Assembly (NCBI GenBank): GCA_000827325.1
Contig: KN832873.1
Coordinates: 1,998,245-2,062,244 of the forward strand
DNA length: 64,000 nt
DNA from: Oidiodendron maius Zn
Taxonomy: Eukaryota > Ascomycota > Leotiomycetes > Myxotrichaceae
Direction: 5' to 3'
Both the position numbers and the translations under genes were made by a program. The notes under the pieces were generated by a model. The model saw nothing but the letters and a program-made list of their open reading frames with translations. It was not told where the DNA came from and did not search any database. Shown in pieces: positions 4,906-15,543 of the stretch (position 1 is the first letter of the stretch; each line of letters begins with the position of its first letter).

Positions 4906-6975
4906 ATGCTGCTCCGATTTCGAGGTCCTGATGGGACTTTTCGAATCCCCATAGAACCATCGGAGACCTTTCGCTCTCTGGGAAATAAGGCACGCGAGCC
5001 AGCTACATTGTTGGAAGATGAGGACTGACAGTTTACAGCTCGCAGAGGTCCTTCCCGAAAATGTCGACTACAACACGCTCACTCTATCGCCTCGACCAAC
5101 AGGTGGCGACCTGAAACTCCTTAAGGATATTGCAAATTACGAAGTCTCACGGATTGGCATGCAGTAAGGACAGTTATGTCAAGCTTGTATGCTCTCCCTA
5201 ACAGCTCTCTAGACATGGAGATTTGGTCTTCATCAATTACAAGACACACGACGCCCTCTCAAACGGCCACTCAAATGGTGCTACGAGCGTCCCATCCCAT
5301 CCTCTATCATCCACGAATCGTCTCAATGGACACCCCATACTGCCTACCGAAGATCTCCCAATAGACCCAGTGCCTGTTACCTCACCTTCCGAAAAGATCA
5401 AAAATCCGTGGGAAGTGGTTAAACAATCTCCGTTGGACGATAGGCTAGATAAGCTGGATGGTAAGATACCTCGAAAACGGGACCTGAAGATGTGCCGGCA
5501 TGGGGACAAGGGCATGTGCGACTACTGCATGCCGCTGGAACCTTTCAATGCCGAGTATCTGGCCGAGCGAAAGATCAAGAACCTCTCCTTCCATTCGTAT
5601 CTTCGCAAGATTAATTCTGCGACAAATAAGCCGGAGCTTGGGAGTTCATTTATGCCACCTCTGACTGAGCCGTATTATCGTGTGAAGAGGGACTGCCCGT
5701 CTGGACATCCACAATGGCCCGAAGGTATTTGCACCAAGTGCCAACCTAGTGCGATAACTCTCCAGCCTCAGTCATTCCGTATGGTCGACCACGTCGAGTT
5801 TGCAGATGCCAGCATCATAAACGGCTTACTAGACTTCTGGCGAGCGTCCGGAGCGCAGCGGTTCGGATATCTCTACGGACGCTACACAGAGTATTCCGAG
5901 GTGCCACTAGGTATAAAGGCTGTGGTTGAAGCTATATATGAGCCTCCGCAGGTTAACGAGTTGGATGGAGTTACTCTAAATGAATGGGAGAATGAGACAG
6001 GAGTTGACGAGGTGGCCAGATTATGCGGCTTACAGAAAGTCGGCGTCATCTGGACGGATTTATTAGATGCTGGTGTGGGCGATGGCTCTGTGATATGCAA
6101 GAGACACATCGACTCCTACTATCTCTCCTCTCTCGAAATCGCCTTTGCAGCACGACTCCAGGCGCAACACCCCAAACCCACGAAATGGAGCGATACAGGA
6201 AGGTTTGGATCGAATTTCGTTACCTGTGTAATTTCCGGGGACGAGTCTGGTCAGGTTACCATTTCCGCTTACCAGGTCTCAAATTCTGCAGTCGAGATGG
6301 TTCGGGCAGATATTGTTGAACCTTCAGCCGACCCAGGAGTCATGATTGTCCGAAACGAGGAAGACGAGGGCGAACCAAGCCGCACAAGATACATTCCCGA
6401 TGTCTTTTATCGCAAGATCAACGAATATGGTGCCCAGGTGCAAGAGAATGCTAAACCTTCATTCCCAGTCGAATATTTGCTAGTCACTTTAACACACGGC
6501 TTTCCTTCTAATCCAACCCCCTTATTCCAGGCGAAACCACCTAGTTTTGTCATTGAAAACCGTGACTACATCGGCCAAACCCAGGAGCTACAAAAAGTTG
6601 GAGACCGTTTGGGTCTAGACAAGAGTGGTGGACTCAAAAAATCTAATGAAGGCATCCTAGCCATTTCTGATTTCCACCTCCTTTGTTTCCTTCACGGCTT
6701 CAAGTTCCTGGACAAGGTAGGCTTAGATTCGCTTGCTCCGTATTGTTCCCATACTGACTCTATCCTAGGACGAAGAAGCTCTCCTCTGCAAGGTTGCTAC
6801 TCAACACGATCTGGCAGATGGATATGCCCTACTAGAAACTAACGGCTGGGCAACCCTACTTGCAGTATTGCAATCGACTGGTGAGCGACCCCCCAAACGG
6901 CCATCGCCTGACTCCGGTGATGGCGGTAAAGCCGATCATATAACTAAGAGGGTTGGTCGGGTAAGGCTAGAGTAG
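4906..6975 (+). CDS. NPL4: Nuclear protein localization protein 4
   Basis: Npl4 pairs with Ufd1 as adaptor for the Cdc48 ATPase and delivers ubiquitylated proteins from ER and chromatin to the proteasome. Exons 4906-4989, 5039-5163, 5213-6716 and 6769-6975 give about 639 residues. Domains: N-terminal ubiquitin-like fold ([14 protein letters not shown]), a zinc-binding block with [13 protein letters not shown] near residues 170-185 and a second [16 protein letters not shown], then the MPN-like domain ([19 protein letters not shown]) and the C-terminal domain ending [19 protein letters not shown]. The first intron (4990-5038) has a GC donor after AAG and a CTGAC branch site. The other introns, 49 and 52 nt, are GT-AG. 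Frames join without a break. Confidence 0.95.
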
Positions 6976-7394: not shown

Positions 7395-10300
7395 TTACAA
7401 CGGCTTCCCACCTATAAAATCAGACCACCTGCGGACTTCTCCGGGGATACCTTCTTTCCGGGGTAGCTTCTCGCTCATACATTGAGCAAAGAGCTCGGCA
7501 GTCTTACAATTAGGTTAGTATGCGCGTAGGAAGAGAGGGGATGATCACTTACCTTAGGTTCCATGAACAGTGGCACGCCAAAATCAACAGCATTCCTGCG
7601 CATGACGTAGTCGACATCGAGAGTAGTCTTCCCCCTAGCCAGGGCCAAGTTAAATACGCCACGGATGTCGTACTTCTGGAAGACTTCCCTCAAAGCTCGT
7701 TTGTCTTCCGTTGGGAATTCGATGAGTTCAACGCTAATGTCGTCCTTTGCGGTCTTCTCGAGGAAGTCCTTCACCTCCTTCTCAGCTGCGTAGAGTTTAT
7801 AGCCAAGCGGTGAAAGGTAGTTCACAATGTTGGTCAGGACAGGCTTGCTGATGTCTCCGCCGAAGAGGAGACCTTCACCAGGCTCTGGGACACGGAAATT
7901 CATGGTTGCTTGCAGAGAAGCCCAGTAGGCTTCTACCAGATCCTTTCCGAAGCAGGCAATTTCGCCAGTGCTCGACATCTCAACTCCCAAGAACGGGTCA
8001 GCTCCGGCAAGGCGAGTCCAAGAGAATTGTGGTACTTTAGTAGCAAGATAGTCGCGTTTCACAGCCATTAGATCAACTGGCTCTGGGACATTCTGACCAA
8101 TAAGAGCTTTGGTTGCGACATCGATGAAGTTGACACCAAGAACTTTACTAGCGAAGGGAAAGGAACGAGATGCACGCAAGTTGCACTCGATAACCTTCAA
8201 CTGAGCAGGTCCACCGTTGGGGTCGTCGGCCTTGATGATCTGCATATTGAAAGGTCCGGTAATGCTCCAAGCCTTGGCAACCTTGACTGCAATTTCCTTA
8301 ATCCGATCCATAGTATCCTGGTCCAGAGATGCAGGAGGAAGAATGAGAGTCGCGTCACCAGAATGAACGCCAGCTTGTTCAACATGCTCGCTGACTGCGT
8401 GGAGGATGAGTTTGCCATTAGATCCAACAGCATCAATGTCAATTTCTTGGGCACCTTCAATGAACTTAGTGATAACGACAGGGTGATCTGGCGAGACACT
8501 ACTGGCTGCTTCGAGCTTCTCTTTCAACTCATCTTTGCTGTGTATCACCGTCATTGCAGCTCCGGAAAGAACATAACTAGGTCGGACAAGAACAGGATAG
8601 CTGACTTCTTGGGCGAAAGCCTCAGCGTCGGCGACTGAAGTAAGTTCCTTCCAGGCAGGTTGATCAACGCCGATGCTGTCCAGGATTTCGGAGAACTTCT
8701 GCCTATCTTCAGCCCTGTCAATATCTTTAGGATCAGTGCCAAGGATCCTAGCTGACTAGATAATATGTTAGTGATAGTAATGAGTTGTTGACAGTAAGAA
8801 ATTCGAGTCCAGAAGTCCAGAATTGAATGCCCTGGTAAGATGTTGTTGACAGTAACAAACTTGAGTTAGGAAGTGTAGAAGTTCCCACACTTGGCTTTCC
8901 CAAGCCAAACCAAATGAATGAGAATTATCATAACTTACGCCTGTTTCCTGAAGGCGGAGTGCAATGTTTTCTATCATCTAATTAGCACGGAGTGCCGAGA
9001 ATTAAGAGCGGGCTAAGGAGCTAAGGAGCCACTCCTAAGACCAGCAGAAACCGGGAAATTATTATGAGAATATGACTTACGTGGCAATTGACCTCCGACG
9101 GAGACAACAATACCGTTAGAGCTTTCTAACTCATAAATGTCTAAAACTCTCTCATAACTTAACTCTTCAAAATAAAGCCTGTCGGCCGTATCAAAATCAG
9201 TCGAAAATGTCTCCGGGTTGTCTACGGCCTAGATGTGAGTTTGAGATACACAGGAACTTGGGACTCAATAGCTTACACTTGGAGGAAGTTAGCAATGATA
9301 CAATATGACTGAAGTTAGGGTGGTTAAAATGGACGGCGTCGATTTCATGAAAGACCCAAGAGGAGGTTACTTACATTGATCATAACAGTCTTCTTTCCCA
9401 TCTTTCTCAGTGCCTGAGTGGCACTGACGGCACACCAATCGAATTCGACAGAGCTTCCAATTCTGTAGACTCCGGAACCTAGGATAATGGTTCCGTGATC
9501 ATCGAAAGTAACATCGTGAGTGCTGGCGTTATATGTTGTCTAATAATTCAGTGAGCCATAATACGGAATTTTGGAAAGTGATAACAATCCAGAGGCAGAC
9601 CCATCTTGAGGAAGGTCCATCCAAGTTGGTCGAATGGGCGGCGTCCATTCAGATGCAGGTTGATCCAAAGGCAGGCGCATCATGAGGCAGGTTCATCCAG
9701 CCGGATCCGGAAATGAAAACACAAGACAGAAACAGACAATATAGCAGAAAATGGGGCAGAAAATGGAGAGAAAATGATATTTAACTCACATAAAAATAAT
9801 TCGTGTTAGTGGGGAACTCAGCAGCGAGAGTATCAATCCTCTTCACGAACGGAGTGATACCGAAGTTCTTTCGACGAGCTCGAACTTCGAGCTCGGTACT
9901 TCCTACAGCAAGGGCAATCTGTTTATCAGAGAAGCCCAACTTTTTGGCCTTCAGGATAAGCTCTTTCTTCAGGCCAAAGAGGCTCCCGATATGCTCAAGT
10001 TCACGAGTACAGTCAACAATATTCTGAAGCTTGTACAAGAACCATTTGTCGATCTTGGTCAATTCGTGGACGCGGTCCACAGTGTAGTTCTCATGTAGCA
10101 TGGCCTGGCCAACGGCAAGCCATCGTCGGTCTGTCGGGTTTGCCAGTTCGAAGTCAAGGTCTTCGAACTTGTCACCCTGAAATCCAACGTATTTGGGATC
10201 GACTTGTCGAATAGCTTTCTGGATGGACTCCTCAAAGGTTCTGCCGATGGCCATTACCTCGCCAACAGACTTCATGGCACTGCCAATATCACGTTTGACA

Positions 10301-11738
10301 TGTTGAAACTTGGACAAATCCCACCTTGGAATTTTGGTCACAATGTAATCCAGTGCTGGCTCAAAGTTTGCCGTGGTGGTTTTGGTAACGGCGTTAGGAA
10401 GTTCCGGCAGGGTATGGCCAAGACCAATTTTCGCAGCCGTGTAGGCCAGAGGATAACCCGTAGCTTTCGAGGCAAGAGCAGATGAACGAGAGAGACGAGC
10501 ATTGACCTCGATGACACGGTAGTCGAGTCCATCGGGTTGCAGTGCGTACTGAACGTTACACTCGCCCACAACTCCTAAGTGGCGGACAATCTTGATCGCT
10601 GCAGAACGAAGCATGTGATATTCCTCATCACTCAAGGTCTGGCTAGGGGCCACAACTATGGAATCACCGGTATGAATCCCGAGGGGGTCAAAATTTTCCA
10701 TGTTGCAGACGGTTATACAGTTGTTGCTGGCGTCACGGACAACTTCATACTCAAGTTCTTTCCAACCCTTGAGGGACTTCTCAACTAATATTTGAGGGGA
10801 CAAAGTGAGAGATCTTGCAGACAAGTTCCGGAGCTCCTCCGCGTTGTTTGCAAAGCCAGAGCCAAGACCTCCGAGAGCGTAGGCAGCACGGACGATGATC
10901 GGATATCCGATTCCTTTTGCCGCCTCTAGAGCCTCATCTACAGTGCTGACAGCGATTGACTGGGCAATGGGGATGTTGATCTCCCCAAGGGCCTTGGCAA
11001 AGAGATCTCTGTCCTCGCTTGTCTCGAGTGTTTTGATGCTCGTACCCAATACCTGGACACCGTACCGCTCGAAGATCCCCATTCGCTCCATTTGTACGCC
11101 GAGATTCAGGGCGGTTTGACCACCAAACGTAAGGAATATACCATCGGGCCTCTCGCGCTCGATGACATATGTTACATATTCTGGGGTGACAGGGAGGTAG
11201 TAGACCTCATCGCTGAGGACATGGGCGGTCTGGATGGTTGCGATATTAGGGTTGATAAGAACGGACGACACACCAGCTTCTTTCAAAGCTTTTAGTGCTT
11301 GTGAGCCTGTATAGTAGAATAGATTAGCATAAGTCTACATAGACTAGTTAAGAGCATCTGTAGAGGAGTATCTCAAGTTGAGTCATTTGCAAAGAAAAAC
11401 CAACCTGAATAGTCAAACTCTCCAGCTTGTCCAATACTCAAGCCACCACTACCAATAACGAGGACCTTCTTAACATTGACAGGATTTGCAGCTCCCTTTA
11501 CCACTCCGCTCTCGAGGTATGCCTTTGCGCTGGGAGCGGGTTGTACCTGGGCCTTGCACACCGCCGGGTTCGAGAAGAGGCGCACAAGTCCGGTGTTCTT
11601 GCCAGCCGGTGCATGGCTCTTAGCAAAAAGGCATCCCGTCGATGATCTAGTAGTAAATTTTCGGACAGGTGCAGCTGGAGCCCGAACGTGACGGATAAAT
11701 GAGCCTGTTCGCCCAGCCAAGCGAACTGAGGCTGCCAT
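7395..11738 (-). CDS. CPA2: Carbamoyl-phosphate synthase, arginine-specific, large subunit (mitochondrial)
   Basis: Makes carbamoyl phosphate from bicarbonate, ATP and glutamine-derived ammonia for arginine synthesis. The N-terminus ([19 protein letters not shown], arginine- and serine-rich, no acidic residues) is a mitochondrial presequence, and there are no fused ATCase or glutaminase domains, so this is the arginine-pathway enzyme (Neurospora arg-3 type). Two ATP-grasp halves are visible: [21 protein letters not shown] opens the first, [16 protein letters not shown] the second, and the C-terminal domain ends in GGKPL. Best exon set: 11405-11738, 9790-11306, 9375-9539, 9277 (one base), 9081-9221, 8939-8970, 7553-8755, 7395-7502; about 1166 residues, the family length. 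Without the one-base exon the invariant N-Y-N-P-E-T motif would read N-A-V-D-N-P-E-T. Introns of 98, 250, 110 and 183 nt are unusually long for this window. Confidence 0.95.
8784..8873. repeat. Direct duplication inside a CPA2 intron (58-bp offset)
   Basis: Two related ~32-bp segments, 8784-8815 and 8842-8873, share an identical 14-base start (GTTGTTGACAGTAA) and diverge afterwards. They lie in the 183-nt intron 8756-8938. Confidence 0.65.
9587..9705. repeat. Degenerate ~16-bp tandem repeat inside a CPA2 intron
   Basis: On the minus strand the 250-nt intron 9540-9789 holds about seven imperfect copies of a unit like GATNNNCCTGCCTNTG. Examples begin GATGAACCTGCCTCAT, GATGCGCCTGCCTTTG and GATCAACCTGCATCTG. 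It is non-coding, since the flanking exons join in frame. Confidence 0.7.
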
Positions 11739-12619: not shown

Positions 12620-14307
12620 TTAGTCCTTTTCTAGTCTAACAGCCGGATTCCTCTCAATGAAAGCTAGATCTACTTTATGTCCTAGCAATTCTCGAATATT
12701 GTTCACCTAGCGGAGTCAGCGACCGTTTCAAGGGGATAAACAAAAACCTTACCTTGTACTTAATCATTGTTGGGCGTTCCAAGCTTAAACCCCAGCCAAA
12801 TACACGCATATCCTTCGGCAGCCCAAGTGACTCCAACATCTCTGGTCTGAACATGCCACTATTGCCAATCTCAACGAGCTTATTCAAGCCCTTGTGGAAG
12901 CTGAAAATCTCCATACTTGGTTCAGTGTATGGGTTGTAAGCTGGCTTGAAAAGCAGGTTTTCGATCCCCATCTTCCCAAAGAAGATGGTCATAAACTCCA
13001 TCAGCCCACCAAGAGATAGACCATAGTCTGCAATGACGCCCTCGACCTGATGGAACTCGGCAAGGTGAGTCATGTCGACAGTTTCGTTACGGAAAACCCG
13101 GTCAATTGAGAAGTAGCGAGCTGGAGGTGGCTTTCCATCAAGACCCTTTCTTTGTGCCAGCTTGTGGAGCATAGCCGTAGACGTTGCGGTGGTGTGCGTT
13201 CGAAGAACCAATCGTTGTGATTCGTCTTCGGACCATGGGTATCGGTAGCCAATTGAACCGTACTTACCATCCTGATGCACTTCCCGGACATTATTCCAGT
13301 ATGACACATAGTCTGCCTTGTCGTTATCCGATTCAGCACGAGGTCGATCTGCTAGCTTTGGGTCTGAGATGTAGAAGGTATCTTGCAAGTCACGAGCTGG
13401 GTGTTGCTGAGGCACGTAGAGTGCATCGAAATTCCAGAAGCCGCTCTCTACGAAGTGATCGGTAGGCATTTCCTCGAAACCCATTTCGAAGAAGATTTGA
13501 CGGAGCTCATGCCGAACTTTGTTCAGGGGGTGCAAGGCACCGGGATGCTGATCCGCTCCTAGGGCCTTGAAATTATATTGCTTGAAGGCAGCGGTTTTCC
13601 ATGCACCACTATAAGAGTTAGCTCTTAACCATCTGTTAAGATATTCTAACATACGACTCAAGCATCTCTGCAGTCAAGTCGGTCTCTTCCTTTGCTATTT
13701 CCAATGCAAACTTTGGACCCTTATAGATCTTGAAACTTATGACCTTTTGCATCTTGACCAACTTTCGCTTTCTTAGGTCTTTTATGACATTAGAATCTGG
13801 ATGGGTACGTGTATTCTGGATGATCTGGAGTTCTTCCCGGGTGGTATCATTTATGGAGTCCGTCTGTAGGTATTAGTCTACGTATATCTAAGCTTCGGTA
13901 TTGCAACTCACAGATGCTACAAGCCGGCCATCCTTTCCTTTCGCAATCCACTTTGACTTGAAGGCCTTGCCTTGGCCCACCTTAGCAATGTTCTTGTCTC
14001 CAACGGCAGTCTCCAGCTCTGCGACTGTGAGACCGTTCATAGCTTGTCGCAGAGCCTCAAACACTCGCGCTTCATGACTCCCATTGGCGGCGATTTCCAA
14101 ACCCTCAGCTTCCAAAAGGGCTTCTTCTCGATCAATTGTATCGTATGTGATCATAGAGCGTGAAGCAAGTCTGTCCAGAGCGCTCTTGACTTCCACTGAT
14201 TTCGTTGAAGTGAAGGCATCTGACGACAAGATTGGTTCGTTCTCTGAAAGAGCTTGGAGAATTTGCGATGGCAGATCACCTTGACTGTCATTCTGAAGGC
14301 CTGCCAT
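12620..14307 (-). CDS. FRS2: Phenylalanyl-tRNA synthetase, alpha subunit (cytosolic)
   Basis: Catalytic subunit of the heterotetrameric enzyme that charges tRNA-Phe. Exons 13912-14307, 13655-13863, 12753-13608 and 12620-12706 encode about 515 residues. The N-terminal third holds winged-helix-like tRNA-binding modules ([20 protein letters not shown]...). The class II core starts at [20 protein letters not shown] and shows [22 protein letters not shown], the motif 2 region [17 protein letters not shown] and the motif 3 stretch [15 protein letters not shown]. The last exon gives [13 protein letters not shown] and ends in PAVRLEKD. No presequence, so this is the cytosolic rather than the mitochondrial enzyme. 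Introns are 46-48 nt. Confidence 0.95.
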
Positions 14308-15543
14308 GCTTGAGCAAATGCGCCGTCTATAAAATGCGCAGTGTGCTGGTTATTCGTGGAGCAACTCCCAATTTCAATTTACTCACTTGTGACTCTTAAC
14401 ATTTTATTTTGGTTCTGGGCGAACATCAGGCAGAAAATCATTTTGCCTCATATACAAGGCTTAAAAGTCTTATCCAAGCACCACACCCCCCTTATGACTT
14501 AGCTTTCGAGACTGCGATATATAAGTCCCTTGCAGGTAGCATCGATTTCTACACAGGCCACTGCAGAGATTTAAGTCGTGGCACCTACGGGAGCTTTTCG
14601 GTCTGGCCAGCAGCACAGTTAGTAAAACTATGTTTATTGCAATCTACTTCGAAAATATCGCCAATATTCAGAAAGACTCGTCTCAAAATTTCAGATAGTG
14701 GAGTTGGCTTGACAAATCTCGATACAAAAAAATTCGATTCTCTACTATCGAATAAGCTCGAGAAACGGCTAGAAAAGATTTCGTTAGGGGAGTTAGTTTG
14801 CTCTTAGCCAGAATAATGTGCTTAAGAGCATTACATCTTTTGTGCGCCGTGATGGAATGATTATCTTTGTTGGTCATATTATTCAACCTGACTTAAAGGC
14901 CCTAGATCTGCTTAACTTCGATATCTCAACATTCAACATGACCATTCTCGATATTCAAAGCCTAGATTACTAATTTCGCTCTTCAAGTGGACCTCGCGAG
15001 CAACAACAATGCACCCACCGTTCTGGGACACAACCTGTACCTACTCGGCGTAACTCGTCTAGTGTAAGTGTGAATTCGGATCGCATAGCTGTAGAACGTG
15101 TAGAGTAGGGTAAAAATCGAAGAGGTGGCCCCCGAGGCCGTGGAAAGCGAAAGATAGAGAGAGGGAGAGCATATTGAGCGAGATTAGCACCGAAACGGAC
15201 CGCCATTATAATCGAAGCGGAGAGAGCAGGAATACTGAGAAGGGAATGTAGTTCTGGCGGTGGTCGAGGAGAGAAAGACAGCGACAGATTGTATTTTTAT
15301 ATCCGCACTGTCGCAAGATGTAGAGTAACGCGATTTTTGTTTATAATCAAGGACTAAGTTGTTTTAGATTCGTATCATATTCATGACGCCTTCCACAAGC
15401 TCTATGCAGGCATATATCTTAAACGTACCGATAATCACGGAAAGCCGCACTACCCAGGGGAAGAACCATGCCTTACGCAACTTCATTGCAATGCTCCGGG
15501 TAGCAAATATACAGTATCGTGAGGTACACAAATTCCAACTGTC
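14308..15543. other. Intergenic, 1.2 kb, no supported gene
   Basis: AT-rich plus-strand frame 14409-14807 and a minus-strand frame 14970-15206 have no family resemblance and no convincing splice context. Much of 14600-14960 is A/T-biased. I cannot name any element here. Confidence 0.4.

What the first reader, a model, noticed from the sequence alone, without database searches (positions are those of the whole stretch)
9222..9374. Probable one-nucleotide exon in the carbamoyl-phosphate synthase gene
On the minus strand the exon ending ATG ATC AAT (9375) is followed by GTAAGT. Downstream comes a good acceptor (CTAACTTCCTCCAAG), one T (9277), and then a perfect donor GTAAGC; the next exon opens at 9221 with AC AAC CCG GAG. 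Splicing AAT + T + AC restores the invariant N-Y-N-P-E-T motif of all carbamoyl-phosphate synthases. The simplest alternative, one intron 9229-9374, would replace that Tyr with Ala-Val-Asp, and a single intron to 9222 would shift the frame. Introns on each side would be 97 and 55 nt. From memory, a single-nucleotide exon has been reported in a plant APC11 gene; I know of no established fungal case.
Basis: partly seen in the sequence, partly recalled or inferred. Interest (0 to 1): 0.82.

Follow-up and report, generated by a model that had tools for sequence, protein, structure and literature searches.

The report
One-base exon in fungal CPS gene
In a fungal gene for an arginine-making enzyme, one single DNA letter appears to be a complete exon stitched between two introns; a matching full-length protein from contigs too short to be unspliced agrees with it, and faults in other fungi's gene annotations hint that the oddity may be old and widespread.

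Summary
In the arginine-specific carbamoyl-phosphate synthase large-subunit gene (minus strand, 11738-7395), exon 9539-9375 ends AAT|GTAAGT; a branch point and acceptor lead to one base, T9277, followed at once by donor GTAAGC; the next exon opens at 9221 (AC AAC CCG). Of 427 splice solutions enumerated here, only this one gives N[Y/F/C]NPET. A database protein (P0002, source 'lgn', longest contig 4249 nt) equals the predicted spliced product at 1166 of 1166 residues; the unspliced gene is 4344 nt, so that contig is most likely spliced RNA. Its nucleotides were not seen. The spliced junction was not found elsewhere in the genome. The pattern CTAAC-N5-15-AG-N-GTAAGY was found 15 times in 45.9 Mb. 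Annotated proteins of some relatives fail at exactly this residue, 13 of 240 fetched by the same four-residue loss, in four fungal classes: this suggests, without proving, an ancient one-base exon. New member of a known kind.

The parts
7395..11738 (-). Whole coding span of the arginine-specific carbamoyl-phosphate synthase large subunit (1166 aa, 8 exons counting the one-base exon)
   Evidence: Gene model; identical to P0002; CPS structures matched
9375..9539 (-). Exon 3, ends ...K-K-T-V-M-I-N (AAT), phase 0
9278..9374 (-). Intron upstream of the one-base exon, 97 nt, GTAAGT...CCAAG, branch-point-like CTAAC at 9292-9288
   Evidence: branch point inferred from consensus
9277..9277 (-). One-nucleotide exon, T, first base of the Tyr-673 codon (T+AC)
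   Evidence: only 1 of 427 splice solutions gives N[YFC]NPET; spliced product matches P0002
9222..9276 (-). Intron downstream of the one-base exon, 55 nt, GTAAGC...GTAG; skips a closer AG at 9230-9229
9081..9221 (-). Exon after the one-base exon, opens AC AAC CCG GAG
11405..11738 (-). Exon 1, start codon and probable mitochondrial leader
   Evidence: matches P0002; leader inferred by eye
9790..11306 (-). Exon 2
   Evidence: P0002
8939..8970 (-). Short exon (32 nt) after a 110-nt intron
   Evidence: P0002
7553..8755 (-). Long 3' exon
   Evidence: P0002
7395..7502 (-). Last exon with stop codon
   Evidence: P0002

Best explanation
T9277 is a true one-nucleotide exon. Two ordinary GT-AG introns lie back to back with one coding base between them: AAT | intron 97 nt | T | intron 55 nt | AC. 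Both are removed, giving AAT-TAC-AAC (N-Y-N) and the full-length 1166-aa enzyme. Because the AG that ends the first intron occupies positions -3/-2 of the second donor (AGT|GTAAGC), two spliceosomes could hardly sit there together. The introns are therefore most likely cut in sequence, probably the upstream one first (GTAAGT donor, CTAAC branch point 11 nt before the 3' end), which rebuilds the donor as ATT|GTAAGC. Short introns recognised across the intron and not across the exon would make such an exon tolerable. Shown: the anatomy, its uniqueness among the enumerated solutions, and the amino-acid sequence of the spliced product. Inferred: that P0002 comes from RNA, order of removal, intron definition, constitutive splicing.
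For: Splice enumeration: 1 of 427 solutions (40 in frame and stop-free) gives N[YFC]NPET, and it is this one. P0002, 'lgn', longest contig 4249 nt, equals the spliced model at 1166/1166 residues, while the genomic span is 4344 nt. The 21-nt spliced junction was not found in the 45.9 Mb genome within 3 mismatches, so no intronless copy is seen to supply it; the only other long match of P0002 in the genome is 57% identical. AG-T-GTRAG with a branch point arises in 0.015% of shuffles of the gap; 15 places found genome-wide for the N-type pattern. Among 118 homologues, 5 of the 5 indels of 2 or more residues that begin within residues 560-859 lie at residues 672-674.
Against: No read or transcript nucleotide sequence could be fetched; the RNA evidence is a protein translation plus a contig length, and what 'lgn' means (I take it to be Logan assemblies of public reads) is recalled, not stated by a tool. 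The same protein would arise if the assembly had lost a T at the exon end. The downstream intron must skip an AG at 9229, seven bases nearer the branch point. The one-base exon pattern is not enriched genome-wide over its reversed control (15 against 39).
Confidence: 0.93

Rival explanations
1. Assembly error: the real genome has ATCAATT|GTAAGT and one ordinary phase-1 intron of 153 nt ending at 9222; there is no one-base exon.
For: Gives exactly the same mature protein as P0002; other introns of the gene range from 50 to 250 nt, so 153 nt would be normal.
Against: It would have to coincide with an in-phase branch point-AG-T-GTAAGC inside the intron, which arises in 0.015% of shuffles; the N-type pattern was found 15 times in 45.9 Mb. 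The missing base would not be in a long homopolymer. The four-residue loss in 13 annotated relatives is best explained by a donor straight after AAY, i.e. no extra T there either (inference).
Confidence: 0.04
2. A single intron 9374-9229 is used and the enzyme really carries Ala-Val-Asp in place of Tyr (or another in-frame single intron: V-N, or loss of Y-N-P-E).
For: These are in-frame, canonical GT-AG solutions, and 9229 is the first AG after the likely branch point.
Against: P0002 shows Tyr there with no insertion. 225 of 240 fetched homologues have N[YF]NPE[TN] and none contains A-V-D-N-P. May still occur as a minor isoform; not testable here.
Confidence: 0.02
3. A spliceosomal twin intron (stwintron): an internal intron interrupts the donor, branch point or acceptor of an external one.
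For: Two consecutive introns, and stwintrons are described in several Pezizomycotina (abstracts listed); the arrangement is one base away from a [D1,2] stwintron.
Against: Here the first intron ends one coding base before the second donor, so no splice element of the second intron is interrupted, and both introns carry complete GT...AG.
Confidence: 0.01

Closest known systems
CYP621A one-nucleotide exon of Fusarium (PMC12940212; abstract, introduction, results and discussion read)
   Same: Nuclear protein gene of a filamentous fungus; AG-N-GT arrangement; the one base restores frame and a conserved motif; reported in 20 Fusarium orthologues; SRA read support in two species.
   Different: Unrelated gene (P450, function unknown, rarely expressed by the authors' account), base G in AGGGT; here base T in a core arginine-synthesis enzyme, in a Helotiales fungus and perhaps far wider.
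APC11 one-nucleotide exon of plants (PMC4674806 outline and abstract; PMC8831610 passages)
   Same: Constitutive single-base exon between two introns in a conserved gene; in most land plants, missing from annotations.
   Different: Plant gene, base A in Arabidopsis; tested there with GFP fusion constructs.
VPS55 one-nucleotide exon of land plants (PMC8831610 passages)
   Same: Conserved one-base exon with conserved donor (GTRAGT); annotations without it give wrong proteins.
   Different: Plant gene, with isoforms or paralogues lacking it in several lineages.
Fungal mitochondrial one-nucleotide exon in rnl between two group II introns (PMC12308204, passages)
   Same: A single base separates two introns in a fungus.
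   Different: Mitochondrial rRNA gene with group II introns, not spliceosomal; the paper cites a similar Ceratocystis case that I did not read.
Stwintrons of Pezizomycotina (abstracts listed; passages)
   Same: Two consecutive introns removed in order, the first making the second usable.
   Different: A stwintron's internal intron interrupts a splice element; here one coding base separates two complete introns.

Membership tests
Single-nucleotide exon | One base flanked directly by AG upstream and GT downstream | tested here: met
   AAG-T-GTAAGC at 9280-9271
Single-nucleotide exon | Both flanking introns complete, with canonical donor and acceptor | tested here: met
   GTAAGT...AAG (97 nt) and GTAAGC...TAG (55 nt)
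Single-nucleotide exon | Base needed for reading frame and conserved sequence | tested here: met
   only 1 of 427 enumerated splice solutions gives the conserved motif
Single-nucleotide exon | Present in mature transcript | tested here: met
   At protein level only: P0002 identical over 1166 residues, longest contig shorter than the unspliced gene; nucleotide reads not seen
Single-nucleotide exon | Not explained by a missing base in the assembly | tested here: inconclusive
   Raw reads not available; decoy pattern improbable by chance
Single-nucleotide exon | Conserved in related genomes at DNA level | not testable with these tools
   No fungal DNA collection could be searched; the prokaryote scan kept 80 prokaryotic loci and the viral scan one viral contig. 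Indirect: annotation failures at the same residue
Stwintron | Internal intron interrupts donor, branch point or acceptor of an external intron | tested here: not met
   One coding base separates two complete introns

The most novel reading that the evidence does not exclude
The one-base exon in this gene was already present in the common ancestor of Leotiomycetes, Sordariomycetes, Lecanoromycetes and Dothideomycetes and survives in many of their species. It would be one of the oldest and most widespread single-nucleotide exons known in fungi, and public annotations of a central arginine-synthesis enzyme would be wrong in many genomes because gene finders cannot place it: they jump from AAY|GT to the next in-frame AG inside CC-GAG|AC and drop Y-N-P-E.
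Probability: 0.6. Interest if true: 0.78.

Novelty: new member of a known kind. Interest (0 to 1): 0.62.

Why it matters
One base is the smallest possible exon. In the papers found here there are two plant nuclear genes (APC11, VPS55), one fungal P450 group and some mitochondrial cases. A case in a conserved metabolic gene gives a clean model for how a spliceosome handles overlapping 3' and 5' sites, and a practical warning: 13 of the 199 database-annotated proteins fetched lack four residues (Y-N-P-E) of a conserved motif at exactly this joint. If the exon is ancient, it also shows that such an extreme structure can be kept for very long times.

Tried and rejected
Rejected: single intron 9374-9229 (A-V-D), 9370-9222 (V-N) and 9374-9211 (loss of Y-N-P-E), against P0002. 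Rejected: a longer cryptic exon using the second acceptor-like CTAACTTCAG at 9318-9309; 9308-9277 is 32 nt and shifts the frame (counted by hand; the enumeration covers it). Rejected: stwintron (no interrupted element). Not supported: an intronless second copy as source of P0002.

A genome-wide look for further one-base exons of the type CTAAC-N5-15-AG-N-GTAAGY gave 14 other places; read by eye for open frames, none was recognised as a one-base exon between conserved coding exons, and at least two (L098, L099) lie inside long open frames. This was not a systematic survey and no homology search was made on them. The comparison of NCBI-annotated proteins (15 of 199 anomalous) with those of source lgn, jgi or ena only (0 of 41, not all of them fungal) is in the expected direction but weak, Fisher p = 0.08. 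The Nucleic Acids Res paper on a single-nucleotide intron shift is not held.

Full report
What is there. On the minus strand, 11738-7395 encodes the large subunit of the arginine-specific carbamoyl-phosphate synthase. The spliced model has exons 11738-11405, 11306-9790, 9539-9375, 9277, 9221-9081, 8970-8939, 8755-7553 and 7502-7395, and gives 1166 residues.

Is it forced by the sequence? I enumerated solutions with one or two introns of at least 30 nt, GT or GC donors from 9405 to 9236 and AG acceptors starting from 9370 to 9196: 16 donors, 8 acceptors, 427 combinations, 40 in frame and stop-free, and exactly one that gives N[Y/F/C]NPET, with T9277 as exon. Three solutions keep the expected length; the other two change the residues around the joint. 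In 20000 dinucleotide shuffles of the gap, AG-T-GTRAG arises in 0.275% and, with a CTRAY branch point 4-20 nt upstream, in 0.015%; the window's own density, which counts this place itself, predicts 0.0024 per gap for the latter. In the whole 45.9 Mb assembly CTAAC-N5-15-AG-N-GTAAGY was found 15 times on both strands, against 39 for the pattern read backwards, so it is neither common nor enriched. The 14 other places, read by eye, were not recognised as one-base exons between conserved coding exons.

Is it in RNA? A search with the predicted protein (residues 560-860 scored) found P0002, source 'lgn', two member sequences, three contigs, longest 4249 nt. It equals the model at 1166 of 1166 residues. 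The gene from ATG to stop is 4344 nt with introns, so a contig of at most 4249 nt that encodes all of it most likely comes from spliced RNA. That 'lgn' means Logan assemblies of public reads is my recollection. The spliced junction was not found in the genome within three mismatches, and the only other long match of P0002 in the genome is 57% identical. I did not see the nucleotide sequence of the contigs.

Which residue, and how conserved? Three searches each listed the best 120 of far more hits (7989, 7860 and 774), 240 different proteins in all. Of these, 225 have N[YF]NPE[TN] (219 Tyr, 6 Phe), 13 lack exactly Y-N-P-E (I-N-T-x-S-T-D), and two (P0015, P0111) have other changes at the same spot. 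P0003 is counted among the 225 although it also repeats about 50 residues there. Human CPS1 has Cys (V-N-C-N-P-E-T).

Annotation failures at this joint. Among the 118 homologues aligned to P0002 (P0001, Albugo, left out), five of five insertions or deletions of two or more residues that begin within residues 560-859 lie at residues 672-674: losses in Lachnellula arida, Sclerotinia sclerotiorum and Hymenoscyphus albidus, insertions in Venustampulla echinocandica and Ophiocordyceps polyrhachis-furcata. Just outside that stretch, seven Penicillium proteins have losses beginning at 860 or 868. Of the gene's five other intron sites (residues 112, 617, 720, 730, 1131) only 1131 shows an indel, one insertion. 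The four-residue loss is what a gene finder would do if the exon ends AAY|GT and the next in-frame acceptor is CC-GAG|AC; the window gives the same kind of product under that splice (9374-9211). The 13 proteins come from Leotiomycetes (Lachnellula arida and suecica, Sclerotinia, Pseudogymnoascus), Sordariomycetes (Neonectria, Cercophora, Lasiosphaeris, Verticillium, Monosporascus, Colletotrichum), Lecanoromycetes (Teloschistes, Xylographa) and Dothideomycetes (Rhizodiscina); lineages looked up, those of Sclerotinia, Lasiosphaeris and Verticillium recalled.

Against wide conservation: 184 of the 199 NCBI-annotated proteins read normally at the joint, among them near relatives of Sclerotinia (Botrytis, Monilinia) and Neurospora; they may be correctly annotated, or have lost the intron, or have an ordinary one. 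None of the 13 is an Aspergillus, Penicillium or Talaromyces protein although many were fetched. Searches used a query that itself has the loss, so they favour such proteins and give no frequency; the list has 4 anomalous of 120. All 15 anomalous proteins are NCBI annotations (15 of 199) against 0 of 41 with sources lgn, jgi or ena only, p = 0.08. No relative's DNA could be read, so this part stays inference.

The fungus. Among 41 chosen homologues the best named match over the full length is Monilinia (89%), and in a FastTree tree the window falls among Helotiales next to an unnamed protein, P0006 (orders partly recalled, Chlorociboria, Lachnellula and Venustampulla looked up).

How it works. 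Two complete GT-AG introns flank one base. The acceptor AG of the first overlaps the exon side of the second donor, so simultaneous assembly is unlikely; ordered removal is the natural reading (inference). The downstream intron uses the second AG after its likely branch point; the 110-nt intron of the same gene does likewise (CTAATTAG passed over, ATGATAG used), and P0002 agrees with both.

Known before? From searches of the held library: plant APC11 (PMC4674806, outline and abstract), plant APC11 and VPS55 (PMC8831610, passages), Fusarium CYP621A (PMC12940212, abstract and three sections), a fungal mitochondrial rnl case between group II introns (PMC12308204, passages), and a placozoan mitochondrial cox1 case (PMC5436844, listing only). 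PMC8208691 only cites the Arabidopsis paper where the term occurs. One search (microexon, fungi, 1-nt) returned none. I saw no listing from these searches that ties such an exon to a carbamoyl-phosphate synthase gene, but one search listed 15 of 127 papers, and subscription journals are mostly not held.

Verdict. A well supported one-nucleotide exon, a new member of a known and very small kind. Its possible age and spread are the most interesting part and can be tested directly in public genomes.

Noticed in passing
window 9318-9309 (minus): A second branch-point/acceptor-like CTAACTTCAG inside the upstream intron; used with donor 9276 it would give a 32-nt exon out of frame.
   Followed up: partly
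window 9080-8971 (minus): This intron ends CTAATTAGATGATAG: the AG close behind the branch point is passed over and the next one used, as P0002 agrees.
   Followed up: yes
P0003, Ophiocordyceps polyrhachis-furcata CPS: The annotated protein repeats about 50 residues at exactly this joint (MIN-E-YNPEN...MINYNPEN), as if the predictor duplicated the stretch or the genome holds a tandem duplication.
   Followed up: no
homologues near residues 860-883 of the enzyme: Seven Penicillium database proteins lack 8-17 residues there, perhaps a second annotation trouble spot.
   Followed up: no
G000:C4:1573970, C6:714870 and C14:412368: Other CTAAC...AG-N-GTAAGY places; by eye not recognisable as one-base exons.
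   Followed up: partly
window 5202-6842 (plus) and 12675-14349 (minus): Neighbouring genes look like NPL4 and phenylalanyl-tRNA synthetase alpha subunit (recognised from the translations, by memory).
   Followed up: no
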